In this document: positions 23,265-61,968 of the stretch, one piece after another
Numbering within the stretch: the first letter of the stretch is position 1
Layout: each line of letters begins with the position of its first letter
Source: Hydractinia symbiolongicarpus
Lineage: Eukaryota; Cnidaria; Hydrozoa; Anthoathecata; Hydractiniidae
NCBI RefSeq assembly: GCF_029227915.1
Contig: NC_079877.1
Location: 15,610,851 to 15,674,850 of the forward strand
Direction of reading: 5' to 3'
DNA: 64,000 nucleotides
Translations under genes and position numbers: made by a program
Notes under the pieces: generated by a model
The model's database searches: none
Told to the model about the DNA's origin: nothing
What the model saw: the letters and a program-made list of their open reading frames with translations, nothing else

Positions 23265-26200
23265 ATGGTGTTACCGTTACCCTTTAGTCTTCTGGCACTA
23301 ATGCATTTTTTCGTTCTCAAAATAGAATGTCAGGCAAACAATACTTCTCTGTATATATTTATAAATGCTATATCCAATTGACCCTTATTTTCGAAAACAT
23401 GGTTGTTACAGAATTCCTTGGTAAATGGACTCTGATTCCTTCATTTTGACTAAGAAGGCTCTGAATATTTTAGGATATTAAAGTTCAATTATTACGGTGT
23501 TCGAAACTCATAATTTTGAATAATAATCACGTATGTCGGTTGTAACGTTATAAGAAAGGAATAGATGCATGGAAACGGAAAGCAGTTTCAAAATGGTTTA
23601 CTAATAACTTTTTAAAACATGTGTGAGATGTTCCATTTCAATGTCTGTTCAGAGTTCATTAAAAATAAGTTCAATTTTTATACATTTAGCACAAGTTTTT
23701 CTATTGTTGCTTCCTTCTAATTTAACTATACATTTTTTATTTTAGCGAATGGAGTCACAATAACTACAAAATCGAATAACAAAATTGTACTTAAAGGCAA
23801 TACGTTACAATTGGAATGGACTGTAAATGTATCTCCTGGTGACATTATTGCTTTAAGAAGTGTCTACTTGTTACCTGACTTCATTAGTCCAATACTAGTT
23901 GACGGTAGTGTCATAGAAAAAGGTCGAGAATTATTTGGTGGAAACAGATTATCAGCTACATATGGGAACACGACGTACACAATGTCTTTAATGGATGTGA
24001 GATACAATGAAAGTGGGACATTTCGACTATTTGTATTTTTTCGAAATAATGGTTTAAAGGAAACCAAATCCGACATTCATGTTAGAGTTACAGGTGGGCT
24101 GTACAATACTTTTTCAATCGACTGGAAGCCTATTGGTCCTTCGCTGCGAATAGTATTAGTTTCGCATTCAGGCTGAGTCATGCGAGAGTTTATAAGAGTG
24201 TGAATATATCCTTTATGCTTATCGATCAGCATAAGAATAGGATTAATATTTTGGGCGGTTGCCTAGTTGATCGATTTAGGTGCTTGCACATCATTCAACA
24301 TGATAGCAGTACCAATAGGAACTAAAGAGGCTATTTTGGGTAAGCAAGTTCAATAATAAAAATTCAACAATAGAATTATCTCAAAAAAGAGAGATGAGAT
24401 GTTTATTCAATATTCCTATTTTTGCTCAAAAATCGTGATTAGCAGCTATATTTCAATCACAGGTTGTGATTGGTTCAAAAATCAATTGCATCTAATTATT
24501 TGCGACTAAGTAATTATAACAGTCGCGACTTGGTGCAAAAAGTTGCCCTTTTAAAAGCTCAAAATGGAAGCAATAGGTTGTTGTAAGAGTTGCTGTTTTA
24601 ACAACTTTTGGTGGTTTTGTGTAAACATCCCAACTAATGCTCTAGCGGATTAAAAGATAGATTTTTAGGGGTTTTTTAGGGATGAGAAAGAGGCTCCCGG
24701 TGTGCAACCCCAAACTCAAAAAGGTTTTAATTTGATAGGACAAGCAATGTTAGATAAATGTTATTATGTGAGTGATTTTGGATGACGACATCCATTATTT
24801 CCGTCCCTGATATTTCACCTAATACTTTCTTAACATATTACAAGTCCGCTGAAGATATATGTGCGCAAAAAAAAAGTAAACGATAAATAAAAATGATGCC
24901 AAACCCACATCGCTCACATTGAAATCAATCCTTTTGAGTTTTTTTCAATAATTTTTATAAATTATTATTGTAAGTCCATCATATAAAAATTAGACACTTT
25001 AATTACATCAGTGAATCTTATCTTTTTTTTTAGAAAAAATGTCTTTTTTTTAAAATACCTTATTTCTATTTTAATGTTATTATTATTTTAATGGGACGAA
25101 TAGCCATTGTAAATATGGAAGTGCCTGAAAGACAGTTAATAAAAAAATAAAAAATAAAAATAAAATAAATAAAATAAATAAAAAAAAGGATCTTGAAGGT
25201 AGAAAAGAATTCTAATTAATCAGTAAACTATTGTATTTATAATATTTCTTTATAAAAATCAACGTTACAAGTTTACCTGGTTCAACTTTAAATTAAAACG
25301 TTCACTTTATATTGTATCAAACCATTATATAAAAAAACCATTATATAAAAAAAATTTTTAGCTGTAAAGTTATCTCTATCTATCCAACAAAAATAATAAC
25401 TTTAACTTCGCTTTTTGATACCAATACAAATCAATGCAGCTCGTGCTTTTTTTAATAAGATTGATTTATATTACACTGGGTTTTTATAAAGTCGTGTGTA
25501 AAACTTTTTTTGCCTTCAAATACGTTGTTGTTCGTGGGTACAAAAATAGTTTTTATCATTATCCCCCGATTTAAAGGTTAGGAGGCTGGATGTTCTCAAA
25601 TTGTCTTTTATTTTACAATTATGATGTTCTTAATTTCTTTTATTTTTTTAAATATTTTTGTTAAACAATGTTGCTCAACTTGGTGCTTTTATGTTTTAGA
25701 ACACACGTTAGCGCAAAGAGATCTTTCTTTGGTTAGACGTGCACACACGATTACATTTAAAAGTAATGCGATTTTCCTTAAAAGATAAATAGGACCTGTT
25801 ATTTCGAACATATGCAACTGAAGCTTAAAAATTAAAAGAAAATAAGCATGCGTACTTGAAAGACGAATCGTTCTTGCTTTCAAGAATTTCAAAGACCCGA
25901 TATTTAAAAACTCAAAAATTAAATAGTGCTTAACGCTGGGGTATATCCATTTGAAAATGTTAGTTTTAATGCTGCATTTACACTTGAGCACATTTATTTG
26001 GATTTATGAGTGAGCCTAATAATAGAAATATATACGGATTGGGGTCATACGCTAACACCTGTTTTTTTTTCATATTTATACCGATCTGAATAACTTCTGA
26101 ATTATTTTGAGGTGATAATTTAAAATGTATGTTTTGGTGCACGAGCGTAAACAAATGAAATCAGTTAAAACATTTCCGTTTTACAACAATCACATTCCTG

Positions 26201-29200
26201 TTTGATTCCGAATACTTTCTTTATAACCCGTTTAAGTGCTCACGTTTAAACGCAGTATAAATATTAAAGAGTCATGCATATTCAAAGTATTTCTAAAAAT
26301 ATTTGGAACTTTTCTATAATATTTTTAAGGTGGGAAATATGACCATTTAAATCAGATGGTTTAGTAAAATTTCTACTTCTACTCGTCTCAAACAAAAATA
26401 AGATAATTGTGCGATAACATATGCTTTGTTCTGTTGCTGTTTTTGTAAATTTTAAACACTCACCGACAATAATTAGTAATATCTCTTTCTCTGTATGCGC
26501 TATCTTGTCATTCTTTTTTCGGTAGTTGCCTTGGCGAAGAAAAATGACCGCAAAATAATTACAAAAGAAAAATAAATTCTGTCAATATACTTTTTTAATA
26601 AGCATGATTCCACAGATTTTTCCTTAATGCGCAAAGTTTTTAGACCAACCAAGCGTTTGTTTAACGGTATGGTTTTAGTTGCAGCCACTAATGCTTCAAT
26701 TATGCTGAACATGAAGAAAAAAGAAATCAACTAAGCCTCGTTAATTCTTAAAATATTTAAATAATCAGTATCAGGACATCGAAAAGTTAGAAAAAATCTT
26801 TTAAGGAAGAACAAAACCATAGTGATAAAATAAGACTTTAATAATATGCTAATAATTTAAAAAATAAGAATTAATATAGCATATCATAATCTTTACGGAT
26901 TCGTCCGCCTTAAGCAAACTTTCCAGTTGGTCCACCTCTTCACCACTGTCAATGCCGACAAACTCTCCTATTTGAGGACTGTTTAACTATTCATCTTTTC
27001 TGTGAATTTTATTATTTATCATTCAAAGACTAAAGTTAATGTTTTTTAAACAGAACAAGAAACTCAAATATAAGAAAGGTACTGCCTTTTGCTGGCAAGT
27101 CCCAAGCAGAATTTCTTAATTGAAAACCACAGACGGAAATGTATTTAGCGATATTGGCCATTTTGACTTTTTGATGAATTTGATAGTGGCCGCTTGTAGT
27201 CAGCTCCTACAAGCACTTTCCTAAACGTGCGTATTATACAGCAATTTGTTGCACTACATGAAAAGGCCTAAAAAGCGTGAAATCTGCGCGTGCTGAGCAA
27301 AAATTAGCACACTTTAAAATTTTAAAAATTAAACAAATAACCAAAGATCTAAAGTCCAAGCATGATGTGAGAACTGAAAAGGTAACCAAGGTTGAAGTGC
27401 GTTTTACAAACAAAAAATGGCTTTCTCGATTGCTTGTTGTCACGATCTTTGAAAATCTTCCTTTCTATGCAAGAATTTATGTCCAGGATTGTACTAAATA
27501 AAAGAAAGACTTAGTACAGCTATAAGAAATATGCATTAGAAAGGAACCTTCAAATTCGTCCTCCTTTGCAATAATTCATGTCCGGGATTGTGGTTAATAA
27601 ATAGTAAATTCAATAACTTTAAGATATAGTAGTACCCTTTATTATTTTATTCTATTTTATTTTACATGGTTTAGAGTTAATATATCATATATTTAGATAT
27701 CTCATATATTTAGAAAAATAAACAGTCATTTTCTGTAACAAATATGAATTGCTGTTGAATAATAAGTACCGTTGTTATGTCACTTCTTATAGGTAGTTCA
27801 AGTTTTTGTGACATAAATTTGAAATATCATCACACTGTAAACGAAAGTGAAGTTTTAACAGTGGTGCAGAATGTATGTGGATATCCGATACCTGAATTGA
27901 AATGGAAAGTGGGAGATGACAACTTCAGTACTGCATCTAGCCCTTCTGTTATTAATAATGAAACCAGACAATACGAATACAGTTTTAAGACTCGACATAT
28001 CACTCGCAAAGATTGTGGAAGAAACCTCACATTTGTTACTTCTAATACAATAGGAAGTATAGAAAGAAATGCCAAAATTGATGTGAAATGTGAGCATGAA
28101 TTTTAATATATGTTTGTTTTTATTAAATTTTTCATTTTTAAGAGTTCCCTTAAAGTTTCTTTTTGTGATGTTTTTCATAGTTGTTCCTTCACCAGTCTCG
28201 ATGGTTTCGTTGTCCAGTTATAATGGAACCTGTGTTCGTGTCACTTGGGATGGAGAAGATACTGGGAAATGTATTCTCAATTACCATGTGTGGTTTTCTG
28301 GTAGAGAGATTACTTATAACACGTCTAACACATATTTTACACTCTGCAATGCAACAGATGTTCGCAATGTTACTGTTTGGGCATCATACAATGCAAATGT
28401 GGAGGAACATTTTACCACAACTTCATCACCAGATATCACCTTGACAACAAATAGCACCACAACTTTGTCACCAGATATCACCTCGACGCGAAACATAGCG
28501 ACGACCAATGCAGTAAAATGTGTACAGAGAACATGTAAATTAAACTGTAAATATGTTCTTGTTTTAGATGTTTTTTGCCATTGTTTCTAGCAATCACATC
28601 CTGAAAAGGGGGACTGGGTATAGATTAACTGGAGTATAGAAATTTTTAAAATCTCCTAATGAATCAAGATAGATTTGATAATTGTAAAAGGTCAGCAAGT
28701 TGAGTATATAATTATAATATATACGGCAATTTAGTTAAATGGCGGCCTCTTTTTAAGTTAATTTTAAATTATTAATACAACTTGGTTATTGGATCGTAAT
28801 CCCTAGGAATTAACAAACGCTGGTTGGAGAGATTTATAAAATACAAATATTAAGTACGTTAAACAACTACAGAGTAGTATCGATATCGAACTTGTCTATC
28901 AGGTCTAAGATTTATTAAAACAGCTAATTATTTCTCCTTTATCATTACTTTTTTTCCTTTTAGGTGATTGCCAATCTACAAGTAACATTACCGTTTCGAT
29001 CATTGTCACATTAGCTATCACACTGATTTTAATTACAATTGTTTTTATAATTTCAAAACAAAAAGGTAAGTATGTCCTGTTCATGATCTTATTTGTGATT
29101 GCTAATTAAAAAAAAAACCCAAAATACAGCATATTTATTTTGAGAATGTTGGAGAAGTATCGTTTATAAATATTTCCAAACAATATTTGTGTTGGAACCT

Positions 29201-30243
29201 AGGATTTGAAAATTGGCTGTGTTATAATATATACTATTCCGGTAAATACACAAAGGTTTCGACAGTCAAATGACTCGGAGAAAATACAGACACAAACATT
29301 TCTTCTGCTGACAGAGAACAACGGGATCGGACATATAAAATGATGTTAAATTGTAGCAGAGCATCTGAATCTGCAAAATGTAAAAAATTAAATCAACAAA
29401 TTAAATTCTTTATGCCGAGAGAATAAATAATAACAGCTCAAGTCATCACGGCCAGTTCATTTTTACTGATGCTTTTTAAAAAAAAAACTGTACTGCACAA
29501 AAAGGGGGAAGGGGCAGGGAAAGGGGGGAGACTTAAAACAGCCCAGCTGAAAAGCACAAAGTGTAGCTTAGAAAAGTCTCACGAATACCCCACGACTATC
29601 CGTAAGCAGTAACGGGCGTTTAAGTTTGATTAGAACATTTGTTTGTAAAAAAAGTCACGCAAGGAAGGTTAATAAAACAGAGATGAAATATTGCGAAAAA
29701 ATGTTGGATTTCAGTACGAGTGTAGTATTTTATTATTTATTGATAATTTCTCTCACAAATAAGGTGATAATTAATTGCGTCAAGCTTGGGTTAATTGTCG
29801 ATTTGATTGTTCAGAAACGCAACATTAAAGAAACTTAAAACAAAGTTTTAAAACTTTTCCTATTGCCAGTGAAAATCGTTTGTAATTCTTCTGTATCAGA
29901 TAACGACTACTTCAGGGTATTTGTTTTTTTTACTTTAAAAAATTAACCAGCATTATATTTTTTTGTCTTCCTGGCGATTTGAACAACGTCTAAACGTTAT
30001 CGAAGTAATAATTACGAAATACAATAAGGAAAATCTGCAAAAAGTTGTGACAGCAAAGTTTTAAAATTTCACAACAGTAAATGCTTTTTTTATTTAGGTT
30101 TTATTATTGTCATCAAAAGGCGGAAAAGACCACCACAAATCTATAAAAATCGAAGTACTGAAGCAGAGTCGACAATTTCTCATTATTCAGATGTTGACGC
30201 CAAAGCTCTGAAGTATATATGCAAATTTGCCAACGACGACTGA
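23265..30243 (+). CDS. Alr-like Ig-superfamily transmembrane receptor (gene A)
   Basis: Exons: candidate signal peptide 23265-23333 (MVLPLPFSLLALMHFF...); domain 1 23746-24093; domain 2 27793-28089; domain 3 plus Thr/Ser linker 28181-28534 (28546 is an alternative donor); transmembrane 28964-29065; tail 30098-30243. All joins from domain 1 on are phase 1 and in frame, giving about 415 residues without the signal peptide. Domain 1 is V-set-like (LEWTVN, YNESGTFRL) but has no cysteine. Domain 2 is I-set-like with shifted cysteines (NVCGYPIPELKW, KDCGRN). Domain 3 is Fn3-like (VRVTW, VWASYN) with several N-glycosylation sites. The order matches Hydractinia Alr allorecognition receptors. The tail has a basic stop-transfer stretch and one ITIM-like SHYSDV, then a frameshifted short end. 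The exon 1 splice is unresolved: its donor is GC and its phase does not match. Confidence 0.8.
25137..25188. repeat. A-rich simple repeat
   Basis: AAAATA/AAATAA low-complexity tract in the long intron between domain 1 and domain 2 exons of gene A. Confidence 0.8.
29504..29528 (+). other. G-quadruplex-capable intronic tract
   Basis: Four G-runs (5, 4, 3 and 6 G) separated by 2-3 nt lie in the intron between the transmembrane and tail exons of gene A. A recognisably homologous G-rich tract (AAGGGGCGGA...GGGGAGAGGCTAAAA) lies in the corresponding intron of unit B, near 47000. Confidence 0.6.
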
Positions 30244-30310
30244 ACATTAAAAGCAGTAAAATGAAATTAAGTTGCATAAGAAGGACATATACGCCAATGT
30301 CAAGGTCTAA
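30212..30310 (+). pseudogene. Decayed distal tail of gene A
   Basis: In the frame +1 to the used tail frame, 30212-30229 encodes SIYANL. After two stops, 30287-30310 encodes IYANVKV followed by TAA. These match the tyrosine blocks of the unit B tail in order (SIYAGL ... MYANIKT-stop). The distance between the SHY and SIY tyrosine codons is 34 nt here and 39 nt in unit B, so a 5-nt deletion accounts for the frameshift. The active frame now stops at 30241. Confidence 0.7.
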
Positions 30311-31919: not shown

Positions 31920-33483
31920 ATGGAGGCGTCAGGAGAAAAAACACTTAATACAGATATTTTATCAGCTTGTTCAACACCTAAAAACAGCTTTTTTCAAAGC
32001 TTTACTTCACCAAACAACATCGAAGTTTCCTTAGACAATTTATCTACAGATTTCACCGTAGAGAATGCTACAAACATTGGGAATTTGCCAGGAACATCAA
32101 CAACAAACGCTGCAGCTGGGGGAGGATTTACATGTTGTGTACCTTTATGTTACAACAACTCAAAAAGAAACCAGTGTAAAATTTAAAATGTGCAGTGTTG
32201 TGTTTAAATCTGTCCACTGTAAATTTATTTTTATCAAATTGTCGTTTTACGTCATTCCAAAAGATGAAGGTTTAAGAAAGAACAATATTCCAACGATTGT
32301 ACCAAAAACTATAGCACCTACACCGGTTAAAAAAAGAAACACCATGAGCAGTCTTGGTTTAAAAAGAAAGCTACCTTCCCCTGAAAAACCTAAAGATCCT
32401 GAGCTGACTGTAGAAGAGGCATTACATCAAGAGATTCAAAAATTGGAAGCCACCATAGCTAATATAAAAGTTGAAATAACAAAAAAAGAAAACTCATTAT
32501 TAGCAGAGATAAATTCTTTACAAACAGAATTTGATGAAAATAAATTTACAGTGGACAGATTTAAACACAACACTGCACATTTTAAATTTTACACTGGTTT
32601 TGAAAGCTACGAAATGTTTAAACTTGTACTTGAATATTTACAACCAGCTGCTGACTCTCTAATATACTGGGGATCAAATACTAACATTGAAAACACAAAA
32701 ACCTATAATGGTAAACGTAGGCGATCCAGAGCTACAACAGCTGAAACAGAATTTTTTATGATTCTTATTAGACTTCGCTGTGGATTTCCTATTGAAGATA
32801 TGGCAATACGATTTAACATGTCGACTAGTAATGTAAGTTGAATATTCATTACTTGGATAGACTTTTTGCACACTCAACTGAGAGTACTTCCTATATAGGC
32901 TTCAAAAAAAACAGTAGCAGAGACAATGCCAAAATGTTTTAAAGATTTATATCCCACAACACGTGTTATAATAGACTGTACAGAAATATTTATAGAGATG
33001 CCTTCTTCATACCGCAGCCAATCAGCTACTTTTTCCAGCTATAAACATCACAACACTGCTAAAGGATTGGTAGGGATTGCACCAAGTGGAGCAATTACAT
33101 TCGTATCTGATTTATATGCTGGAAGAAGTAGTGACCAAAAAATTATTTGACACAGTGGAATTTTAAATTTATTAGAACATGGTGACTCGTTAATGGCTGA
33201 TCGAGGATTCGATATTGAAGAGGATTTACCTGATGGAGTAACTCTTAATATACCTGCGTTTCTAAAAGGTAAAACACAACTAGATTTGGGAGAAGAACTT
33301 GAAACTAGAAGAATTGCTTCTGTAAGAGTTCATGTGGAGAGAGCAATTAATCGAGTTAAAAACTTTAGAATTTTACAGTCAATATTTCCATTGTCAATGG
33401 CACCTGATTTAAATAAAGTCTGGGTAATTTGCTGTTATTTAGTCAATTTTCTTCCACCACTTATGGAACAGAATGAGGAATAA
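31920..33483 (+). pseudogene. THAP-DDE transposase (IS4EU type), inactivated
   Basis: It starts at ATG 31920. The beginning of a THAP zinc finger is visible (CCVPLC...SFYVIPKDEGLRK), but its second half is missing and the frame changes near 32180. A coiled coil follows, then a helix-turn-helix-like block (AETEFFMILIRLRCGF...FNMSTSNVS). The DDE_Tnp_4-type catalytic core has VIIDCTEIF (first Asp), SDLYAGRSSD / MADRGFDIEEDLP (second Asp region) and VERAINRVKNFRIL (Glu). Three in-frame stops break one continuous frame: TGA 32839, TAG 32896 and TGA 33148. The two TGA codons are explained by CGA-to-TGA transitions and the TAG by TGG-to-TAG. In life the protein would bind the transposon ends and cut and join DNA in the nucleus. 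Confidence 0.82.
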
Positions 33484-35197: not shown

Positions 35198-36070
35198 TAT
35201 AAGTTGTCGTTTCACTATCCTTCCCTCAAATAAGCCTTTTTCTACTTTGTTTTGTTAAACACTTGATTAATCTATTACAGAGATAAAGTTTTTACAAAGA
35301 GCTATGATCATGGAGATAATTATTTTGTAACAAAACATGATTATTCTCCACAATATATTGCTACGGTTATTTAATTGTTATACGCAAGCAATTTTTTTTA
35401 ATTTCGGCTTTTTTTTCTTGACTTTAAGTACCACAATGCATTGCGCATCTCACTATTTATGGGAACGGTGAATTTACCATACCGCTACATTAAAAAGCCG
35501 TAATTTCCGATCAGTTTATATGCATTATAAAAAAAAAAAAGCTTTATATTGTATTATAAGAAAATTTGTATTGATTGCGATAGACATTTGAATTGGAAAT
35601 TTTTTCTTTTTGTAAAGTAAAAATCACACACTCTGCTTGAACCATTTATTTACATTCTGAATCCGAACGTAATTTTGAAATAGTGGTATGAGATGTAAAC
35701 AGGAAAATGAAAGGTTTTGACTATAATGAGCACGGCGTTGTATTTGGTCATCCTGAATTCGAATCGAATTAATTTATTTTGCACATAAAAAATTCGTCTT
35801 TTTAAGAACACGATCATAAATTCACGTTACTTATCTTTAATACATAAGCGAAAGTACGAAGAGAAAGTACTTGTACTACAACCCTATTAAGCCCGGACTT
35901 ATTTTACTAAGTAAACGTTATGTTCCCCAGGTGTTTTTACGATCAATAAAATTTGCATATAAATTTTACTTATGATATTGTCACTTTTAGCGTTATGTGA
36001 TAATGGAAAGCCCTTTTTGAAAGGATTTTTTTAATTAAAACATGCTTTAACTGGCATAATCTCATTATAG

Positions 36071-36169
36071 GTGACTATTAATTTTCAAATAATTTATCAT
36101 TGTAATTATCGTGGCATTAGTTATAACACTGATTGTAAATGCAATAGTTTTTGTATTTCAAACATAAAG
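36071..36169 (+). pseudogene. Relic Alr-like transmembrane exon (unit A')
   Basis: It follows a good acceptor (...CATTATAG) and aligns with the transmembrane exons at 28964, 46535 and 53993: GAC-TAT for GAC-TGT, then a run encoding IIVIIVALVITLIVNAIVFVF. It is 99 nt instead of 102, has a TAA where the others have CAA, a frameshift just before the hydrophobic run, a TAA near the end, and a donor mutated to GC. No ectodomain exons remain upstream. Its downstream flank (37980-38220) matches the flank after unit C (55050-55270). Confidence 0.65.
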
Positions 36170-36720
36170 GCTAGTACGTAATTTTTTCTATTCATGTCCT
36201 TTATTCTGTTCACTCTGTCATATATTTTACCATTCTTTTTTATATCGATTATTCCACAACAACCACACGAAAGTGTTGGTCAAGCATAGCTGCTGATCAA
36301 TCACGTCCTGAAAGCCTAATATTTGTTATATGATATGGGTAAAAGCGTAAATGAAGTTGTTATCCACATATCCAAAAGCTAAAAAATGCCCTGAAAAAGA
36401 GATTCAGGTTCTGATTTTGTAGATTTTAAATTAAAACAAGAAGCCCTGGGGGCTCTAAGAATTTCCGCGCGCTACCAAAATATTTGATGAAAACCTGCTA
36501 ATTCGTTGTGTTATTGTGCCAAACATTCGAAGGGGTTCGGTGCATGAACCTCTGAAGATAAAGCACACCACTGACATTATATCTTACAACAAACGCAAAC
36601 AAATCGAAACGTGTCATTAAACTCACATTTTAAAAGAAATTGCTAACAAAAAATACAGCCTATCATTCATGGTTGAAAGTCTTGCGATTGAAACGTTTAT
36701 GGTCTTAAACGGCATTAGTT

Positions 36721-43213: not shown

Positions 43214-44884
43214 GATGAGAGTTTGACCGTCATTGGATTTGTTCCTGAAAAAAAGTATTTATCGAGGACAAATTGCTTTCACAAAGAAGGAATAATAAAG
43301 ATAATAAAATATTATTATCCTCGAAATAAATAAATTAGGCAAAATAAAGCTTAAATACATTTTCTTAAAAAACAAAAATATATCGATCCATCAAAGAAAT
43401 GTTATTTACAGTCAGTATGGTGAACTGTCAAGACAAATTTTTGTCCGGTGTTTTTCTTGATATGGGTACATAAGAATATTTAGTATGGCAGTGTGGTAAT
43501 ATGTAATATCTTGAAAAATATACAATTTTCAGAGCTATGGCTGTATATGAAGATAAGAAAACTCGATTAGTAAATGCTTTCCGAATAAGCAAGTCTGCCC
43601 AAAAATAGTGTGAATGGAGTAAATCCGCTCTATAGTCGCTTGAAATAAGCTAAATGCTTATGTAGTTTGTATTTTAATGTTATAGGTATTCTAGAAATAT
43701 GTGGTGAAAGTTTAAAACCTCCTTACAAAATAATTGCAAATGTCAGCTTGACAGTCACACAAGACATATGTGGAAATCCCAAACCTATTGTTAAATGGAA
43801 TTTAGAAGAAGACGTCACTTTTAGTTGTGCGTTGGGCTGTATGTTAATAAATAATGCATGAAGAAAATACAGATATAGATTTGCAACACGAAATATGATA
43901 CGTTCACAGTGTGGGGAAAGAATTATGTATACTGCCAGAAATATATTTGGAAAAGTCGACGGAAACACACTAATTTATATTTCCTGTAAGAAATTATATT
44001 TATTTAATTTTGTCGTTTTATTTATTTTTTGTTTCATTTATCAGCTTAAAATTGTTCTTATTTTGTTATTATTTTATTTTGTTATTTTTTTGGTTATTAT
44101 TTTTAATATTCGCTTTTTTTTACTTTTTTTACAGTGTATTTATGATCAAGTAAAAATTTCGTAAATTCGAAGTACTGACCTAAAGAAATTTTGGCTTCAA
44201 AAACTAGAAAAATGCCAACTTTACCACTGTTTTTATTTTGTTTCTTTATCTTAACCATCTGCAGCCTCATTGTTCTTATAAATTGGTTCGTGCAAAAAAT
44301 CAGTGTAATTTTCACCTACTAAGGTTCGTGCTCTAATGTTTTTTTTTAGTCAAACCTTTGAAGATCACGTTAACATCACCGCACAGACATAACGCAAGCT
44401 GTGTTTATTTGACTTGGTATAGAGAAGATACCGGAAATTGCTTATTTGCATATCATTTGAAATTTGATGATAAAGACGTTTACAGATGATGTTTACAGCA
44501 CCTTTAACACAAATTTTTGTCTCTGTCATTCACCTTGTGCTTCAATTCTGTCTCTTTGGGCATCATACAGAGGAAATGCTGGTTATAAAAATAACATTAC
44601 CTCCGCTCAATATCATCACGACCCGTTATTTCCAACATGCCAAGCTCTAGAACAGGTATAATACAAAACATTCTTCTATTACTTGTTCAATTGTACAGCT
44701 TAATGGTGGTTGGTTAAGTTAAGGCGCTTTAAATCAAATTTTATCGTCATTCGCAGTTTTCCTTCAAAATGTGTGTTATTTTAGATTGGTACTTTTAAAA
44801 AATGCAACTTTAAAACGGCTACAGAAATGATGTTATAATTATTAAAAGCTGGCTATAACTTAGAACATTTTATTGATTATTATC

Positions 44885-46108: not shown

Positions 46109-46534
46109 TTTTTCATGGCCAAAAATTTTCCAATGAAAAGTTAACCTGCCCTAGCCGTACTGAACGATGGAAAAATGAATTTCGCGGTATTGCAAATTGG
46201 TCACCTATCGTAGCGTACCACTTTTCCAACTGCTGCGCATATGTAAGCTTCGCAGAAAATAGGATAAGTTCTTGCATAGAAAGTATGGAACCAGCAGCAT
46301 ATTCAACTGATTCAGATATACAAATAGGTTGAAAGGCAGTCAATAATAAATATCTGTAATATATATACATATAAATTGGCCTTCAACAAAAGTGATGATA
46401 TATATGACCATTCGCAAGAAAACTTATTTATTTGAACTGAAAAATTGATGCACGCAGCGGTCGCACCAGTGTGGACACTGCCCTAGTTGTAGTTTTTGAA
46501 GTGCTGTTCTTACAATGCAACTAATTCATTATAG

Positions 46535-46636
46535 ATGACTGTCAATATGCTAGTAAGTTTGCAATTGGCATTATTAGCACTATCGTAATTGGGTTGACTA
46601 TAAACATCGTTATATTTGTAATTTTGAAAAACAAAG
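46535..46636 (+). other. Intact transmembrane exon of unit B
   Basis: 102 nt, phase 1 at both ends, no lesion. It encodes DCQYASKF..., a single hydrophobic span, then ILKNK. It is nearly the same length and sequence as the transmembrane exon of unit C and is more diverged from that of gene A. Confidence 0.75.
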
Positions 46637-48253: not shown

Positions 48254-48489
48254 GTTTTATAATATTCACTAAAAATCATAAGAAAACACTGCAGCATACG
48301 GAACGAAGATATGATGATAACTATGAAGTAACAGAAACAACATCATCTCATTATACCGACCTGAACGTCAAATCAGTGAAATCGAGTATTTATGCCGGCT
48401 TAACGAAAACATCAGGTTCGTCGAAAGAATATGCCGAAATTGAGTCAAGCGAAACGAAACCGAACATGTATGCTAACATCAAGACATAA
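48254..48489 (+). other. Intact cytoplasmic tail exon of unit B with four tyrosine motifs
   Basis: An open 78-residue tail after a good acceptor (TTTCGTGTAG). The tyrosines at exon residues 34, 47, 60 and 73 lie in SHYTDL, SIYAGL, EYAEI and MYANI, exactly 13 residues (39 nt) apart. SHYTDL and SIYAGL fit the ITIM consensus (S/I/V/L-x-Y-x-x-I/V/L). Neighbouring pairs fit the ITAM pattern YxxL/I-x(9)-YxxL/I. Such tails recruit SH2-domain kinases or phosphatases when phosphorylated. The stop is at 48487. Confidence 0.8.
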
Positions 48490-49158: not shown

Positions 49159-49888
49159 TGTAAATTACTTTTTTATTTTGATCGAATTTTCTTTCTTGAC
49201 ATATTTATTTTAATTTTCCTGAAACAGCATCGGATATTTTATGCTTCAGCAACACAAACTTATACAAGAAACAGTTTTGAAAACTTAAACAAATATGTAT
49301 TACATTTCATTTCCAAATCTGGAAATACGGATTTTTGTTAAAAAAACTCTTTGTGATACGCATATTTTGAATGCCTTGAAAGTCCCAACGCCTTTACAAT
49401 GCCCTTGGTAATCGATTTTGTGAATTATTTAGGAATCTAGGAATTATCTAGAGTCTTACTTCTTTCGTGTCTAAATTTACCTGCTGTAGTAAGCGTAAGT
49501 GCAACCCTTTCTCCTGAAAGTATGGGTAAATAATCTAGCTAGGTCCATGCACATCGTTTTAGTAATGGCAAGTGTATATTAGTGAATTGGAGCTGTAAAT
49601 ATCCATGTATTACAAACATTTGTGCAGTTGCAAAATGTTTTTGAAGTCTCTATGTATTCTTAGCTAACTCGTAGTTACACGACGGTGTTTGCAATATACA
49701 ATTATTTTTAATCACTTACCTCTAAAAGCATAAACTTTACGAATAAGGAATCGTGATAAATTAATGCAATATGTAGCGGATATTGACTCGAAAGATATGC
49801 CGCAAAAAAAAGGAAATAATTGGAAAGAAGTGTGTACGGTAGAATAAATTATTAATTTAGTTTTCTTTATTTTATAAATCAACAGTAG

Positions 49889-52800
49889 ATTTTGGATTGT
49901 CAATTCAACCTGATGCATCGAATGTAACTGTAATAAATGGCGATACCTTAGAATTAAAATAGTAAGTAATTCAAAGAACTGGTGAAATTGTCAATAGTTT
50001 GTGTTACCAAACACTAATTTGACAATATTAAGTGGTAGAGCCATTCCTGTTGTGCAACCTCATGTAATCACGTTATTTAGTGTTGATAGATTTTACATTC
50101 ACGGAATTGTAGAAACATACATGCAATCTCATAGAAAAAGAGATAAAAATTCGAAAATAATTACAAAAGATATTAAATGGTTATTCCGCCGGTGTCTAAA
50201 ACAAAACTTACAACTTATTTAACTATTCCTATCATTAGCGTGGAAAATATCTTTAACCTGATTGGCTAGAAGGAGATACATAAATATAAAATCTTTTATT
50301 TTACATGTAAAATATGACCGCGCAAAATTTTTAGGGGTCTCGGTACTGAGTGGAAAAAAAACAAAGGTTTAACAGAAAATATTGGAATTTCAAAAATGTC
50401 AACAGGCACCTCAAGATTATTTTACAGAGAAACCTAACGGCCACCCCAAAATACATGTTAGTGTGCACACGATGAGCGATAAGCGATCACCTAGGACGGA
50501 GATAAACAAAAGTTTGTTCATAATAAAAAGGGTTAAATCAGCGCTATTAAATTTATTTGACTCGTGGTATATCAACCAGAAATTGTAATCTTGTAAGTAG
50601 CTTGATAATGGGTGGATGACCACCCGACAGGTCTCCCAAACTGTAGAAACGAAATTAAAAAATTGGTGTTGGATGGATTGATATGTTTTTGCTTGATATA
50701 TCAATATTAATTTACAGCAGCCATGCTGTTTTTTTACATGAGAAATACCTTATGGAGGACTGTTTTTTTCCTGAATTTTAGGGGTTTTTAATGAACAGTC
50801 CAAAATTTATTGACATTTCTTTCTTGGTGTCGGATGGAGAGATAGAAAAACGCAATTTTTCAAGACTTATTTAAATATATATTCTATCACAACGACTAAA
50901 GATTTCAAAATTATTATTTGGTTTTGTACTAATTTGCACACTGAAGATATTCAAATTTTTTTTTAATACCTGTCTAATTGGCATTGCCTAAAATTCCGAA
51001 AAAAGTTTCTATTTTCATGGTGTTGTATGGACGTGTGGGGTGGACATTACCAATGTTATCGATTTAAATTGTCACTTTTATATTACAAATTTGACTTGTT
51101 ATCATTTTTTCACTTTGACGTACTATGTCACCTATTTCGTAATAGCCTCTCTAGCTTTATTACACAATTTTGTCACCTAAGTTGTCTTTATATACACGAT
51201 TTTGTTTTATGAAATAATTCATTACAATTATTGCACACCAAAATAAAGCAAATGTATTTTTCAATGTGTATTCTCAATCACACTCAAACATCGTATTATA
51301 GACTTTAAAGCTGTAATAACATTAGGGAACGTTAAAATATGAATTTGAAAATGTTGCGTGAGCGCATTTTTTTAACATCCTAGGAATATTATGTCTTTAA
51401 AAGTAAATGGATGTAAATAAATAGAGCAAGAAAAATACATAATATATAAGGAACTGTTGTTAGTTTGTGGAAGAATGCTTGGATTTGTCGTTCCTCGGAC
51501 TTTCATCCATGCTTTATCTTTCACACATTGATAGTTTGTGCATATTTGTCAGCCTGTTGGCATAAGTAAATTAAACTACTCTGCAGTAGCCTGAAATATA
51601 TCTGCGCGCAACCATTTTGAACAGAATATGGCTAATTGTAAAGAGGGCCATTAAAATCAAGAAGAAGGAAGGTACACGATTTACATTTTTAAAAACTAAT
51701 TAACAAAGGCTGAACGGAACTTTAATTTTTCTGTTGATGACGCCATATAGATCAAGCACAGTTACTGTGAGGTTAAACAAAATTCTATGAGGCAATAAGA
51801 AGTTACAGAGCTAAAAAAGAAATTTAAAGGTTATTCGAGTTAGTTATATACTTCCCCACAACTGCCATGAAGTTTGGTACCCATAAATTCAAATATAGAA
51901 AGTATTAACATTCTCAAACACAGCACGAACCCATTTAACAGGAATACAAATCTTTACTACTGGCACAGCTGCGTAATTGCTTCACCGACATAGAATTTTC
52001 GCAAATATAGCTTTTTTAATCTGGAATCTGTTTTCGATGACATATTTACATGCTCCATACCACACTCTTATCTTGCGTGATACATGTACGGCAATTAAAA
52101 ATATGCAATAAGAAAGCTATGTATGGTTTTCACAATTTGTTTGCGATTTGGCCCTACCTATTTCTTTTGAACAATGTGAGCATAGGGCGTTATATTTGAT
52201 GCGCAATAATTCTAAAGAGTTGTTCTTTTGCATTCATTTAAATAAATGTGTTGTAGCTTCCTGGCTAATAACGACTATCATTTAGTTGCTTGTAAAAAAC
52301 GTGATTCTCTTAGTCCTTAAGCAAGATGCTAAAAGTTGCTCTGCGTCTCCTTTCCGACCTAATCATAATATAACATTTTTTGTTTCTTCACATTTATCCA
52401 TTGTTCATGATTTTCGTGTAATTTATTTAACCCTATTCGGTCCGGGGTTTTTCGAACATATTATGACCGCGGGTGGGTGTTGGCGATTCCGCCCCCTCCC
52501 CGTCAATAACTTTTCATAGGGTTGTTCAATATGAATCAAACTTGGCACACTTATAGTACGTTACAAATGGAACAAAATGGCTGCTATAACTTTTTGCTTG
52601 CGTCAGAACGTTTTCTGTGACGTCATCAGAAGCTTGAAATTTGTTAAAAACACCATTATCTGTATAAAATTTAATTACTTGAGTTCTAGAGCGAATTTTT
52701 AAATTCTGTTTGAAGTTTGTAAAAGCTAAATAAAATTTATTTAATATATTTTCCGGTTTTTATATAGATCAAAAGAAAATTTGCCACATATTGGCCGAAA

Positions 52801-54094
52801 GCTCGGGTTTTTCCGATTTTCGGATAAAACCCGAAACAATCAGGAAATCGGATTAGTTACGCGTCCAAATTATGCAAATTAAGTCTTCTTGATAAAGCAA
52901 ATGTGTGTTGTAAGTTTAAAGTTCTAAGGTTAATCCTACCAATAGTTATTGTATTTTTCATATTATACGGATTTCATAGAGCTTTTTAGGGGTAGTTTCG
53001 AGTAATTACCAATATCGAAGCCTCTAAAAGGTATGGGACATGCATGCAGGCGTCTAATAGATAAATATTGAAACTGACGAAATAAAAACTGTCTAAAACT
53101 CTCTAAATTAGTTTATATTGTTTCAAAAACTTGCTGTGGTGTGTTAGGGTATAGTAAAATGACCGTAAACTCCGTGACTGCGTTTAGGATAATAAAACGC
53201 CTAAAGACAAAATATATTGTGTATGCAAAAACCTAAAACAAAATTAGACTTCGCCAAAAACTTTCAGATTCTGCTTCATCTTAGGTCAGGCAACTTAATA
53301 TTCTGCAATAGAGAAGTCAGTTTTATGAAGAACAAAAACTAAAACCATAAAACGACGTCTGCTTTAGAGAGGTTTTCCTTATAAGCCGTCTATGAGTTAA
53401 TATGGTATAATTGTAGTATGTGTTTTCGATAATAGACGCATCCTAAAAGACATAATTTTTAGAGCTACAGCTGTATATCACGATAGGCAAATCCGCCTAA
53501 AAGTCATTTGGAATAAGCAAATCTTCCCGAAAATTGTTTCGATGGAGTAAATTGTCCTACTTGTTTTAATTTTACCCATTTATTCATTTTTTGTTTCAAT
53601 TATCCAGCCTCTAACTGTGCTGATTTTGTGATTGCTACAAGTTTTGAATTTGCAGCAACTTATTCCTCTAAAAATTTTGCCTTAAAATGTATTTCTCTCG
53701 CTTTTTGTTATTAGATAAGAAAAAGACATAATTAGAGCAACCTTATCACCTTTCTTATTTGATCTTATATTTTAGCCATTTTCAGCGTCATTGTTCTCAT
53801 AAATTGGTTCTTGCAAAAAGCCCAGTGTAATTTTCCGCCACATACGTTCATGTTGTAGTTCTAATTATTTTTTTATAGTCAAACCTTCGAAGATCGCGTT
53901 AACAACATCGTACAGTTAAAGTTCTTATTGACACCTATTGGAGCTGCGAAAATGACGAATATTTTTCTGACAATGCAACCTTTTTATTATAGATGACTGT
54001 CAGTATGCTAGTAAAATTACTATCGCCGTTGTTACCAGCATAGTTATTGAGTTGATTTTAAACATAGTTATATTTGTGATTTTGAAGAATAAAG
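49889..54094 (+). pseudogene. Alr-like receptor relic (unit C)
   Basis: A tandem copy of unit B. Domain 1 begins at 49889 (FGLSIQPDASNVTVINGDTL...), but the conserved Trp codon is TAG and is followed by TAA; the rest drifts out of frame and ends near 50160. Intron landmarks of unit B recur in order (52910-53050, 53110-53160, 53500-53560). The domain 2 exon is missing cleanly where B has 43686-43985. Only the first part of domain 3 remains (from 53879, KPSKIALTTS then TAA), and it runs almost directly into the transmembrane exon at 53993-54094. That exon is fully open (DCQYASKI...VILKNK) with a good donor GTAAGT. No tail exon was found downstream. Confidence 0.75.
52427..52670 (+). mobile_element. 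piggyBac-like MITE fragment
   Basis: TTAA-CCCTATTCGGTCCGG at the left, then a GC-richer interior (GCGATTCCGCCCCCTCCCCG) and CAAACTTGGCACAC. The right end was not found, so the end coordinate is approximate. It is related to 13695-14477 and lies in unit C. Confidence 0.5.
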
Positions 54095-54642
54095 GTAAGT
54101 ATGATTAACTTTTTTTATATAACCGTCTATTTTTTTGTACAATCCTCATCAAGCGAACGTTTTAAAACTCGCAGCCACACAATGTAATCTCTCGAAGTCA
54201 CGACAAGCCTTTTAAGCCCATTTACTGCTCCATTTCTATTTGCTGCTTGTTTCACAATCTGTGAGAGAAATCTATTGCAATTGTGCTCTATTCAAGCGCA
54301 AATGAAATTTACAAGAATTACGTCAGCTAATGTGTGTAATAAGATTTTTGCATTTCCGGCCAAGTTTTGGCCTGTTTTCATGCGAATTATATAAAACTGG
54401 AAAATTTGCTGAATAAATTTTATATGGCTACAAGGAACTTTAAACAGAATGCTTAGAGCTAAAGATTTGACTTTTAAGTTGGCATATTAGGCAAATTTAA
54501 ACTTTGTAATAGATTTCCAAGGAAAGTTCTTATAAAAGCACCTTTGGTGCTACTTGCACTATATAATGCAGTCATTTTGTTCCTTTTAAGATACACTATA
54601 AATATGAAAAGTTTGATAACATGTGAAGGTGATTGCGGAATT

Positions 54643-57410: not shown

Positions 57411-59035
57411 ATTTTTGCCTATACTATTTATGGTTTCTTTCACTTTTTTTTGTTGTCCAACCAGTCTCTCTGTCTATGATCTTTTTATTGTCCCAGTCAA
57501 TAACATGATCCTTCTTCCAGCTATGGTCCCCAATCTCATTTTTGTCTGTATCTGCGTTGCGTACGGCTCTTTTGTGCTCTTGCACACGTTGGTTGAACAT
57601 TCGTTTCGTTTCACCGACATAAACATCATCACAATCCTTACACGGGATTTCGTAGACAATATTACATTAACTCTTCAGACATATTTTGTCTTTCGGATGC
57701 GACAGTATACTACGTAGCGTGTTTTTAGATTGAAACACTGACTTTATTTTATGATCTTTCAATACCCGACGAAGTATGTTACTTGTCTATGGTATATACG
57801 GCATACACACTGTAGCTACTGGTTCATTTTCTGCATCCTCCCCGTCACTGTTCTTATCATTTCTGTTCCTGATTTTCCTCTCAACCTTTTTAACGGTTTG
57901 TCTCGAGTACCCATTTGCAAGTAAGGCGTTGTTCATATGAGATAACTCTTTCTTTCGGTCATTCTCTTCACTAACTACATTGACTGCTCTGTGCAGTAAT
58001 GAGGACACTACACTTTCTTTTCCAGGACATTTGATGATTAGATGTGTAGTTCAGATAATGATCAGTATGAGTTGGTTTGCGGTATACTGATACTGATAAG
58101 TTACCACCGTTGCAAGACACTAGAGTGTCTAAGAAAGGAAGCGTACCATTCTTCTCGTGTTCAATTGTAAATTGAATCTTTGAGTGAAAATTATTGATAT
58201 GTTCATGAAATGTGTCTAGATGTGCTCTTTAAATTATTAAAAAGACGTCATCCACAAATATTTTCCAAACTCTTGGAGCGTGATCTACAGTTGTTAAGGC
58301 TGTAGTCTCATGAGCCTACATATATATTTCAGCTACCACAGAGGAAGTTGGGCCACCCATAGCCACACCGTCAGTTTTCGTAAAGAAGTTACCGTCAAAT
58401 AAATACCATGTTTTTGTAAGTACAACTTGGACCAAGGACATCAGTTTGTCTATAGGGATGCGTGTTTTATTCTCATACACATCATCATTTAGCTGTAATT
58501 CCCTGATGATATATAATGTGTCCTTTGTCGGTACATTTGTGTACAGTGAAGTAACGTCAAATGATACGATACACTCGTCGCCTCGATCTGTATGTTTCTA
58601 AAAAATCCCGAAAACTCTTTCGAGTTTTTACAGTGATCACTCTTTGTGTAATTGCTAAGAATGGAAGCTAGATATTTCGTTAAATTATACAAGGGGATCC
58701 TGTACACGACATGATTGGGCGTATAGGAATTCAAGGTTTATGATTTTAGGAAGACCATAGTCTCTGAAAGTCTAGGTTTATAATACAACCTATCATCAAT
58801 GCTATCGTCTTTATTTAAACGTATCAAGATATTCCTTGTGTCACGCTTGATAGTTTCTGTTGGATCTCGTTTGAGGCGTGCGTATGGACCGTTGTTAATG
58901 TGGTCATAACATTTATCAAGGTAATCCTTTTTGTCAAAAATGACCGTCGTTCGACCATTGTCAGCTGGCAAGATCGTAATACCTTTATCCTTTCTTAATT
59001 TAGACAGTGTGATGCGTTCCTATTTGGATGGTATG
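57411..59035 (-). pseudogene. Penelope-like element: reverse transcriptase plus GIY-YIG endonuclease
   Basis: Minus strand, 5' to 3'. 59035-58738 reads ITLSKLRKDKGITILPADNG... and GPYARLKRDPT. 58734-58489 reads VYRIPLYNLTKYLASIL...KNSKEF. About 58375-58316 has GVAMGGPTSSVVAEIYM, and about 58265-58230 has the catalytic-loop-like WKIFVDDVF. A GIY-YIG nuclease follows at about 57670-57415 (IVYEIPCKDCDDVYVGETKR). RT followed by GIY-YIG is diagnostic of Penelope-like retroelements. Frameshifts and stops (for example near 58735 and within 58020-58480) make it inactive. Confidence 0.8.
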
Positions 59036-60349
59036 TACCAGTTAACATGAGAAATAAGACGGAAACGAACCAAAAATACTTTACCTATCAGTAATAGTAA
59101 CAATATTTCATATTTCCTAAAACTTAAGAAATATTAAGGATGACCAGGACTAACAATTTTTCATCTTTCGAGTCCCTTTTTCACAACATACTATCAGAAA
59201 GTTTGTGGTGATGAGATGGCGCTAAATTTAATAAATATACATACCGGCAACGTTTCACCAGAGTTGAAACGCGCAATATGCTATTTAGCTAATTAAACAT
59301 ATAGGTACCGCAACTCTTGGGGGATATTTATTATACGGTACCGGTCAATTAGTTGTTTTTACAGACACTGGACGAAAATAAGTGCTATTTGCGCTCGATT
59401 TTGACAGGAATATAGGTTTTTACCTTCTTAGACAACATTGGAAACGCTTTTATTAGTGGAAAAAATGCTTGTAATGCAACGTGTCTTATTCAAGATAACA
59501 TTGAAAAATTGTTTTTTTATAAAAAAAAAACACTGAACGTACCCAAACAATACCATCCCTACCGATTTATATTTATCTATAGTTTTTTACACAGTGAAGG
59601 TAAATTAGTTAACATAAAGTAAGCGGATAAAATTTTTCAAAAAATAATATAATACAACTCTAGATAGGAATCAAATTAGTGATATTACAAATTCGTGAGA
59701 GATTTCTGCATTTATTAGGCAATGTTAATAAAAGTGCAATACGGTTTACATTTAGTGTCTCACTTAATGTACATTCCATGGGCCTGGTTAGTATATCAAA
59801 TAAGCTTATTATATTGACCTACTTATATATACGTGTTCCAAAGTTCACGTTTTTACGAGATTCTTGCGCGTGCCTTGAAAAAATCAGAAAAATGGACAGG
59901 CGAAAAAATGCAGATTTTAGGTGAAAAAGTCAAATTATGGTTGAAAACTTTTGTACTGTCGCAACTAGCATCTTTTTACTGGTGTTTTAAATATAAACTA
60001 CATGCATGTTATAATATATATATATTAATTTGAAAGGGTGCCAATACCTGAAAAAAAAGTTTGGAATGGACTGGTATACGGCTTACCGCCTACATTATTT
60101 TGCCTGTCGATTTGCATAAAAGGTTTAGTGATTATAAGCAATGCACGTCACGATGAAATAGTTTTTAGTCAACAAAATGTTTTTTAGAAATGTAACAGAT
60201 AATTTAACTCATAATTTGCGCACAGAAAATTTAAAGAGAATGCAGCTAGTTTGTCATCAAAATGTTTATAAAATTAGACTCAAACATTCACAAACAACAT
60301 TGACTTTTGTATCCACGTAGGGTAATGAATTTACCAAAATTGATATATA
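59036..60349. other. Intergenic, no gene seen
   Basis: AT-rich, short frames only. Confidence 0.4.
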
Positions 60350-60462
60350 GTAGCCGGTGGCACGTGAAAAAATCGCGGTTTATTCCGTCCTTTTAATACC
60401 TCAACTCGCGGTGCTATTTTGCGTGACAGACAGACATTCGTATACGGGTATTATAATATAGA
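60350..60462 (-). mobile_element. Helitron 5' end fragment
   Basis: Read on the minus strand from 60462 the sequence begins TCTATATTATAATACCCG and continues ...GTCTGTCTGTCACGC, like the 5' ends at 950 and 1690. The base before it is A, as expected for Helitron insertion. The 3' end is missing. Confidence 0.5.
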
Positions 60463-61647
60463 TGACTACTAGCAATTAATTGAGATTTGATTTAATTATC
60501 AAGATAAATTTGCTTTATATCATGTAGAACTAAGAATGGTATCTTATAACATATTTCTCAGACGAGCCTCCGTAAAGTTGATGCAAAACTTTAGCTGGTC
60601 TTTTTTTCCACTTCACAAAATAAATCAACCACCATATTTGTTGTATTTTTGTTTACATAAAACTCCCGCGCAGGCTAGAAATAATTTTTCGCAGGGCAAT
60701 ATTTGTTCATAAATTATTTTTCGGGTATAATTATCATAAATTAAAAGAGATCATGTGACCAGCCTGTTCCAGGGCCTATCAATTTCAACAACAAGGCAGA
60801 AGCACTGCGAACGTTGTTGCCCTTCATTTTGATTGAGAAACTTTTGAATGTTTTATGTTATTAAAATCCAACACTACGGTGTTGTAAATCCTAATTCTGA
60901 ATATTCTCATTCCATGGTTGTACGAAGAAAATACACGCAGGAAACGAAAATGGAGTTTAAAATTTTGTAGTGTTTATTCTTCGATATGGTTTGAGAAGTT
61001 TGTTTTGATGAATTCCCGTTATGGTGAGTTTTATAATTAGGCCCATCAAAGCTTTTAAAGCCAGGGCAAACTTCATAAATTTACCCATATTAAAACTGGG
61101 GATTTTTTGTCTAGTATAGCAGCGGTTGGTGAGGGCATAAAGTGCCCACGGTGTGAAAAAATCTGAAAATACTTAGGTAATAAACAGATTTAAGGAAAGA
61201 AATAGTTAAAGATGTTATTGGTATCGCAAATCACATATGCCTAGGGAGACATTTCGACAATTTTGCAGTAAATTTGAATTTCTGGAACAAAACTGCCAAT
61301 AATGACTTCATTTTTTAACTATAAAGCTAAAAATGATCATTAACTCGCTACATGCTTTGTATATAGCATTTATGGACGCTCAAGATAACGCTCGCTAGTT
61401 CCTTATATTCTTTAAAACTGGCCTCTATTTTAACCCTAAGACACATATGTGTCCTTAACAACACCGTAGTTGCCATCTGGTAACATACATGTATTAAATA
61501 ATTATATAACTTACGTGCCGAACAAAAGTCAAAAAAGCCGCAGGCACTTTCCACCACTCGCCCTCCCGGCAGAGCTAATGGATTTAACATAAACGTTTTT
61601 AGTGTTGCTTCCTTTTTATTTAGTCATATCTTTATTTTTAATTTTAG

Positions 61648-61968
61648 CTAATGGAGTCACTGTACTTAATGGCACTAACGTGAAATTAGTATGGACTGTA
61701 AACGTATCTCCCGGTGATACTATTGTTTCGAGAAGTGTCTACTTGTCACCTGATTTCACTAATCCAATACTTGTTGACAGGAGTATCAAGAAAAAGGGTC
61801 TAAAATTATTTGGTGAAAACAGATTATCTGCTACATTTGGTACCGGGAAGTACACAATGTCTTTAATGGATGTGAAATATAATGAAAGTGGAACATTTCA
61901 ACTTGATGTAGCTATTGAAAATGATGGTTTAATAACGACCCAATCTGACATTCATGTCATTGTTAGAG
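61648..61968 (+). CDS. Alr-like receptor, domain 1 exon (gene D, partial)
   Basis: An intact 321-nt exon after ...AATTTTAG, ending AGA-G|GTAGGC, phase 1 at both ends like the other domain 1 exons. It encodes a V-set-like Ig domain without cysteines: ANGVTVLNG, LVWTVNVSPGD, NRLSATFG, DVKYNESGTFQLDV. It is closely related to domain 1 of gene A, and both upstream (60815-60990 versus 23440-23620) and downstream (61970-62300 versus 24094-24680) flanks match, so A and D are segmental duplicates. No signal peptide exon was recognised upstream. No further exons occur before the window ends; in gene A domain 2 lies 3.7 kb downstream, so the rest may lie beyond 64 kb. Whether the gene is functional cannot be told. 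Confidence 0.7.

What the first reader, a model, noticed from the sequence alone, without database searches (positions are those of the whole stretch)
23265..61968. Tandem array of Alr-like allorecognition receptor genes and relics
Five units on one strand (A, A', B, C, D) share the same exon order and phase-1 borders: cysteine-free V-set-like domain, I-set-like domain, Fn3-like domain, transmembrane exon, tyrosine tail. This is the plan of the Hydractinia allorecognition complex. The mix of one near-intact gene, a partial intact gene and three relics records birth and death of a self/non-self receptor family.
Basis: partly seen in the sequence, partly recalled or inferred. Interest (0 to 1): 0.92.

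Follow-up and report, generated by a model that had tools for sequence, protein, structure and literature searches.

The report
Self/non-self receptor genes and relics
This stretch of a colonial hydroid's chromosome holds a row of genes and decayed gene remains from the known family of receptors by which the animals tell self from non-self; the family is already known, but two members here look pieced together from parts of different relatives, one of them the well-studied receptor Alr1.

Summary
The window is Hydractinia symbiolongicarpus DNA: unit A matches predicted protein LOC130636866 and the last unit's domain 1 matches LOC130636868, both at 100%, on a 37,015,953-base sequence, inferred to be chromosome 3, which carries the published allorecognition complex. 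A profile of units A and B (plus one relative) finds four proteins named Allorecognition 1 at E 2.8e-111 to 1.7e-76. A profile of the wider family reaches unrelated Ig proteins of solved structure at E 4.2e-7 at best.

Corrections: the claimed start (23265) has no supported exon. Only A and B show the full exon order. A's tail is cut short by a frameshift. B has at least two frameshifts and a stop. C lacks domain 2, most of domain 3 and a tail. A transmembrane-only relic lies near 36.1 kb. Only domain 1 of the last gene is in the window. No convincing signal-peptide exon was found.

Extra: A and B look mosaic: their domain 1 and domains 2-3 have different relatives (four AU tests, p at most 7.4e-5; groups named after seeing the data). 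The family, its pseudogenes and the donor-exchange idea are in print, so interest is modest.

The parts
23746..24093 (+). Unit A, domain 1 exon (V-set-like, no cysteine), phase 1-1, open
   Evidence: absent from the NCBI model LOC130636866 (P0005)
27793..28089 (+). Unit A, domain 2 exon (I-set-like), open
   Evidence: Pfam I-set 21.2 bits, cut-off 23.7; 77% to Alr1 D9ZHS9; in LOC130636866
28181..28534 (+). Unit A, domain 3 (Fn3-like) plus Thr/Ser-rich stalk exon, open
   Evidence: 86% to Alr1 D9ZHS9 over the domain; exon bounds, in agreement with LOC130636866; fn3 only 13.9 bits, cut-off 25
28964..29065 (+). Unit A, transmembrane exon, open
30098..30243 (+). Unit A, cytoplasmic tail exon, ends early (stop 30241-30243); keeps one ITIM-like motif
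30212..30304 (+). Vestige of A's longer ancestral tail in another frame, with two stops
   Evidence: matches LOC130635934 residues 429-459 at 58% and LOC130635939 residues 382-412 at 61%
36062..36179 (+). Transmembrane-exon relic, fifth unit; stops in all three forward frames of 36050-36190
   Evidence: 73% to A's TM exon and flanks; 0 of 500 shuffles reach the score
40757..41124 (+). Unit B, domain 1, relic: frameshift at a 10-base tandem duplication
   Evidence: 62% to Alr1 D9ZHU1 and 67% to LOC130636865 when read through
43686..43985 (+). Unit B, domain 2 exon, relic: one in-frame stop
   Evidence: 60% to LOC130635917
44349..44592 (+). Unit B, domain 3, relic: frameshift
   Evidence: 77% to LOC130635917 when read through
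46535..46636 (+). Unit B, transmembrane exon, open
48254..48489 (+). Unit B, tail exon, open; three overlapping ITAM-like pairs and two ITIM-like motifs
   Evidence: 0 of 2000 shuffles of the tail give as many ITAM-like pairs; motif patterns recalled; 81% to LOC130635917 over 42 residues
49891..50138 (+). Unit C, domain 1, decayed
   Evidence: stretch 49641-50092 is 69% to B 40519-40976; profile E 2.5e-4 and 0.07
53738..53915 (+). Unit C, intron plus first part of domain 3; domain 2 not found
   Evidence: 77% to B 44216-44386; no domain 2 match
53992..54096 (+). Unit C, transmembrane exon, open
   Evidence: 71% to B's TM exon
61648..61968 (+). Unit A', domain 1 exon of LOC130636868, open; the gene continues past the window
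   Evidence: 100% to P0009 (LOC130636868) residues 98-206

Best explanation
This is part of the Alr gene family of Hydractinia symbiolongicarpus on the chromosome that carries the allorecognition complex. Shown: tandem copies on one strand whose parts match Alr1 proteins and Alr-like genes; decay of B, C and the 36-kb relic; conflicting domain relationships in A and B. Inferred from Alr1: an intact member would be a single-pass cell-surface protein whose outer domain 1 binds matching alleles on a touching colony and whose tail passes on or damps the signal through tyrosine motifs. A' (LOC130636868) is the best candidate for a working receptor. A would be a receptor with a shortened tail, one ITIM-like site and no ITAM-like pair, or a young pseudogene. 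B, C and the 36-kb relic are dead. Likely process: tandem duplication, exchange of phase-1 exon cassettes between loci, then decay.
For: Profile hits to four Allorecognition 1 proteins, E 2.8e-111 to 1.7e-76, and 100% matches to LOC130636866 and LOC130636868 on the 37,015,953-base sequence. PMC11876637 (passages): ARC on chromosome 3, 40 Alr/Alr-like genes on it with some potential pseudogenes, and three homologues outside the ARC, among which neither LOC130636866 nor LOC130636868 is named. Exon phases. Domain-wise identities and trees. Decay of B, C and 36 kb.
Against: No convincing signal-peptide exon for A, B, C or A'. V-set, I-set and Fn3 matches are below Pfam cut-offs; no structure could be predicted. 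No expression, polymorphism or binding data here. The window's place inside the ARC is by elimination; the genome search did not complete (11 tries). No protein named Alr2 was among the 15 hits.
Confidence: 0.93

Rival explanations
1. Generic Ig/Fn3 adhesion genes (titin-, IgLON-, Robo- or NCAM-like) that resemble Alr only through the shared Ig fold and phase-1 exons.
For: A profile of the family does reach titin, opioid-binding protein, NEGR1, MDGA1, Robo and NCAM2 chains at E 4.2e-7 to 9e-3; phase-1 Ig exons are common in animals (recalled).
Against: Named Alr1 proteins score E 2.8e-111 to 1.7e-76 against a profile of the window's units. Unit A's domains 2 and 3 are 64-86% identical to the two closest alleles (D9ZHS9, D9ZHT3) and 45-58% to the other two (D9ZHU1, D9ZHT4; local matches).
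Confidence: 0.02
2. Unit A is a pseudogene rather than a shortened receptor: the tail frameshift and the missing signal-peptide exon mark early decay.
For: Tail frameshift and two further stops in the old tail; no convincing signal exon; NCBI's model skips domain 1.
Against: Domains 1-3, TM and the tail up to the stop are open over five exons with phase-1 splice sites. The absent signal exon may be a search failure: such exons are short, and the models of LOC130635937 and LOC130636868 also lack an obvious one (my reading).
Confidence: 0.45
3. The apparent mosaics are not exchange: domain 1 simply evolves fast, and trees from short exons mislead.
For: Domain 1 exons are about 107-118 residues; the domain 1 tree carries a long-branch warning under both models; the groups tested were chosen after seeing identities; in the domain 2-3 tree the fork that would join A to D9ZHS9 is unresolved.
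Against: Unit A's domain 1 is 61-67% to LOC130635937 and A' yet 25% to Alr1 D9ZHS9, while its domains 2 and 3 are 77% and 86% to D9ZHS9; uneven rates alone do not swap nearest neighbours. In domains 2-3, A' groups with LOC130635937 and LOC130647443 without A (99/98 and 99/97). Four AU tests reject a common partner at p 6.5e-5 or less (LG+G4) and 7.4e-5 or less (mixture model).
Confidence: 0.12

Closest known systems
Alr1 (Allorecognition 1) of Hydractinia symbiolongicarpus, UniProt D9ZHU1, D9ZHS9, D9ZHT3, D9ZHT4
   Same: Same ectodomain plan; domains 2 and 3 of unit A 77% and 86% to D9ZHS9; domain 1 of B 62% to D9ZHU1
   Different: Alr1's tail is longer and of another type; that of D9ZHU1, the one scanned, has no ITAM-like pair. 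A's domain 1 is a different lineage from that of D9ZHS9
Alr-like genes LOC130635917, 932, 934, 937, 939 and LOC130636865
   Same: Same family on the same 37,015,953-base sequence; A' is nearest 937 in domains 2, 3 and tail, B beyond domain 1 nearest 917
   Different: None is encoded in the window; their best matches in it are 81% or less
LOC130647443, Alr homologue on chromosome 6 (PMC11876637, passages)
   Same: Domains 2-3 group with A' and LOC130635937
   Different: Lies on another sequence (33,855,397 bases); its predicted protein lacks domain 1
Podocoryna americana ARC (PMC13119343, passages only)
   Same: Duplicated ALR genes in a syntenic complex, as reported there

Membership tests
Hydractinia Alr family | Sequence homology to Alr1 or Alr2 | tested here: met
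   Four Alr1 proteins at E 2.8e-111 to 1.7e-76 among 15 hits; no protein named Alr2 among them
[quoted passage not shown]
   Same 37,015,953-base sequence as other Alr-like genes; LOC130636866 and 868 are not among the three homologues reported outside the ARC; exact position not obtained
Hydractinia Alr family | Domain 1 V-set-like, without the canonical cysteine pair | tested here: met
   No cysteine in domain 1 of A and A'. V-set match below cut-off in 5 of 10 family domains scanned, 10 of the 15 I had; unit A itself has none; the fold was not tested
Hydractinia Alr family | Domain 2 I-set-like with unusual cysteine positions | tested here: met
   I-set 21.2 bits, below the cut-off of 23.7; shared cysteines in A, B and the aligned relatives. 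That these are not the canonical positions is my reading against a recalled I-set consensus
Hydractinia Alr family | Third, Fn3-like or spacer extracellular domain | tested here: inconclusive
   Close match to Alr1 domain 3; fn3 only 13.9 bits, in 1 of 9 scanned, 9 of the 13 I had
Hydractinia Alr family | Single transmembrane helix and tyrosine-motif tail (ITAM/ITIM in some members) | tested here: met
   B and A' (model P0009) carry ITAM-like pairs; A only one ITIM-like motif
Hydractinia Alr family | Signal peptide on exon 1 | tested here: inconclusive
   Six known signal peptides gave no match better than E 0.37. A scan for ATG exons with a hydrophobic core listed 6 rows upstream of A, 2 of B, 0 of C and 5 of A'; I judged none convincing
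Hydractinia Alr family | High polymorphism, self-binding, control of fusion or rejection | not testable with these tools
   No population, binding or breeding data

The most novel reading that the evidence does not exclude
Genes and relics of this array are live sequence donors: phase-1 exon cassettes (domain 1; domains 2-3; TM plus tail) are exchanged between them and Alr1, so new Alr1 alleles are assembled from neighbours, including ones that no longer work. Unit A, built of an A'-type domain 1, domains 2-3 close to Alr1 D9ZHS9 and a shortened tail without ITAM-like pairs, may also be a receptor whose signalling output was changed by tail loss.
Probability: 0.3. Interest if true: 0.6.

Novelty: already known. 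Interest (0 to 1): 0.32.

Why it matters
Allorecognition in Hydractinia is one of few invertebrate self/non-self systems whose genes are known (so stated in PMC11876637, passages). The window shows in one place how its receptor family is made and lost, names two reference gene models to check (LOC130636866 lacks its domain 1; the 5' exons of LOC130636868 look unrelated to the family), and gives an explicit mosaic link between a family gene and an Alr1 allele. That makes the donor hypothesis, attributed to Rosa et al. 2010 in PMC3276163 (passages), testable with phased haplotypes.

Tried and rejected
Rejected: a domain 1 fragment at 23265; p53-inducible11, DUF604 and tRNA-synt_2e Pfam matches (below cut-off); a signal peptide read straight into A' domain 1 from the pyrimidine-rich intron end; generic Ig adhesion molecules. 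Led nowhere: PDB search with one domain 1 sequence (two non-Ig chains, E 0.41 and 0.59). Domain 1 profile (10 of 15 sequences) against PDB: CD79b E 0.03, with a non-Ig bisphosphatase just as good at 0.032. Domain 3 profile (9 of 13) against PDB: CRLF2 E 0.25, EphB6 0.4, and an unrelated phosphatase 0.4. Paper searches for the LOC names of the window's genes: 0 papers. The key papers Huene 2022, Rosa 2010 and Rodriguez-Valbuena 2022 are not held; what I say of them comes from passages of papers citing them or from recall.
Full report
WHAT THE SEQUENCE IS. A profile made from spliced unit A, read-through unit B and LOC130636865 domain 1 was searched against 5.77 billion proteins (only the 8000 candidates sharing most words were scored). 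Of 15 proteins with E up to 1, 13 are labelled Hydractinia symbiolongicarpus and 2 come from an unnamed source. Four are named Allorecognition 1 (E 2.8e-111 to 1.7e-76). P0005 (LOC130636866) is 100% identical to unit A over 72% of the spliced query, that is from domain 2 to the tail. P0009 (LOC130636868) matches domain 1 of the last unit at 100% over 109 residues, plus stretches at 60183-60317 (100%), 60563-60649 and 60972-61028 (both about 90%). The window is therefore H. symbiolongicarpus, on the same 37,015,953-base sequence as LOC130635917, 932, 934, 937, 939 and LOC130636865. PMC11876637 (passages) puts the allorecognition complex, with an Alr1 gene (LOC130635943), on chromosome 3, with 40 Alr/Alr-like genes across that chromosome including potential pseudogenes, and names three homologues outside the complex; neither LOC130636866 nor LOC130636868 is among them. 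That this sequence is chromosome 3, and that the window lies inside the complex, is inference; the genome search that would settle it did not complete.

ANATOMY. Unit A: domain 1 23746-24093, domain 2 27793-28089, domain 3 and stalk 28181-28534, TM 28964-29065, tail from 30098 to the stop at 30241-30243. Its four internal exons have lengths divisible by three and phase-1 borders. Domain 1 has no cysteine. The tail stops early: the longer tail of relatives continues in another frame at 30212-30304, broken by two stops, so A keeps one ITIM-like motif and no ITAM-like pair, whereas B, A', LOC130635934 and LOC130635937 carry two or three ITAM-like pairs (motif patterns recalled). Unit B spans 40757-48489 with all five parts, but domain 1 is frameshifted at a 10-base duplication, domain 2 holds a stop and domain 3 a frameshift. 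Unit C (49891-54096) has a decayed domain 1, no detectable domain 2, only the start of domain 3, an open TM exon and no detectable tail. A TM-only relic lies at 36062-36179. A' shows only domain 1 in the window. The scan of both strands gave no other match better than E 0.25 apart from this relic (0.038). No convincing signal-peptide exon was found; the candidates that a scan listed (6 rows upstream of A, 2 of B, 0 of C, 5 of A') resemble no known Alr signal peptide.

DOMAIN ASSIGNMENTS. V-set for domain 1 is a sub-threshold Pfam match (16.6 bits for A', cut-off 26; none for A), found in 5 of the 10 family members scanned, out of 15 that I had. I-set for domain 2 is just below cut-off (21.2 versus 23.7 bits). 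Fn3 for domain 3 rests on 13.9 bits (cut-off 25) in one of 9 members scanned, out of 13, and on weak matches to cytokine-receptor and Ephrin-receptor chains, no better than an unrelated phosphatase in the second case. The whole-family profile aligns with titin chain 2nzi_A over profile positions 92-272 (E 4.2e-7), and I recall that entry as Ig-Ig-Fn3. No structure prediction was possible.

MOSAICS. By identity, A's domain 1 is nearest an unnamed relative (P0002, 74%), A' (67%) and LOC130635937 (61%), but its domains 2 and 3 are nearest Alr1 D9ZHS9 (77% and 86%), and its TM nearest LOC130635934 (76%). B's domain 1 is nearest LOC130636865 (67%) and Alr1 D9ZHU1, 932 and 939 (62%), but its domains 2 and 3 are nearest LOC130635917 (60% and 77%), and its tail matches that protein at 81% over 42 residues. 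Trees of 15 domain 1 rows and 13 domain 2-3 rows (rows without the domain left out) disagree accordingly. In domain 1, A groups with A', LOC130635937 and P0002 (96/96, 96/95). In domains 2-3, A' groups with LOC130635937 and LOC130647443 without A (99/98 and 99/97), and B with LOC130635917 (100/100). AU tests under LG+G4 and under the mixture model reject A with D9ZHS9 in domain 1 (p 3.0e-7; 6.9e-6), B with 917 in domain 1 (6.5e-5; 7.4e-5), A with A' in domains 2-3 (2.9e-7; 1.5e-100) and B with D9ZHU1 and 932 in domains 2-3 (1.7e-15; 1.3e-7). Against: the fork that would join A to D9ZHS9 in domains 2-3 is unresolved in both trees, so that partner rests on identity; the groups were chosen after seeing identities; exons are short; the domain 1 tree carries a long-branch warning under both models. 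The four Alr1 alleles themselves fall in three domain 1 clades. This fits the proposal, which PMC3276163 attributes to Rosa et al. [quoted passage not shown] No recent, near-identical tract was seen; the best shared domain is 86% at the protein level.

FUNCTION. From Alr1 (polymorphic, thought homophilic, present in epidermal cells, as described in PMC11876637 passages), an intact member such as A' would recognise matching alleles on a touching colony. Nothing in the window tests this. A versus A' domain 1 gives dN 0.20 and dS 0.35 over 106 codons, which fits constraint on many sites but is no proof of function.

NOVELTY. [quoted passage not shown] The kind and its decay are in print there, and its ITAM/ITIM tails are mentioned in PMC12065747 (passages). 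I found no paper naming LOC130636865, 866 or 868, but A and A' probably fall within the published counts, whose gene lists I could not see. New here, as far as I could check, are only details: the skipped domain 1 of LOC130636866, A's tail loss, the relics B, C and 36 kb, and the mosaic partners.

Noticed in passing
window 6820-7818, +: Open frame of 332 aa with a coiled-coil-like stretch and a MATH domain (MATH_2 E 4e-9, above cut-off); a possible TRAF-like gene upstream of the array.
   Followed up: partly
window 32062-33480, +: Remains of a DDE_Tnp_4 transposase gene (HTH_Tnp_4 and DDE_Tnp_4) between units A and B, with a 73-base inverted repeat (32168-32240 against 32528-32600, 98.6%).
   Followed up: partly
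window 33532-35082, -: Adjacent opposite-strand frames with a YqaJ domain (E 1.1e-10) and a sub-threshold SWIM zinc finger, probably part of a mobile or repeat-borne gene.
   Followed up: partly
window 58319-59019, -: Reverse-transcriptase-like fragment (RVT_1 sub-threshold, one of two frames scanned), perhaps a Penelope-like element (my guess), upstream of unit A'.
   Followed up: partly
window 8753-10248 and 38230-40060: Two copies of a long interspersed repeat, pieces 79-87% alike, with 60-base tandem repeats in both.
   Followed up: no
window 60183-60649: The first exons of the NCBI model LOC130636868 show no likeness to the N-termini of the other Alr proteins aligned and may be mis-annotated.
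   Followed up: partly
P0011, P0013, P0015, P0016: The four Alr1 alleles fall in three different domain 1 clades and apart in domains 2-3 while their tails are nearly identical.
   Followed up: partly
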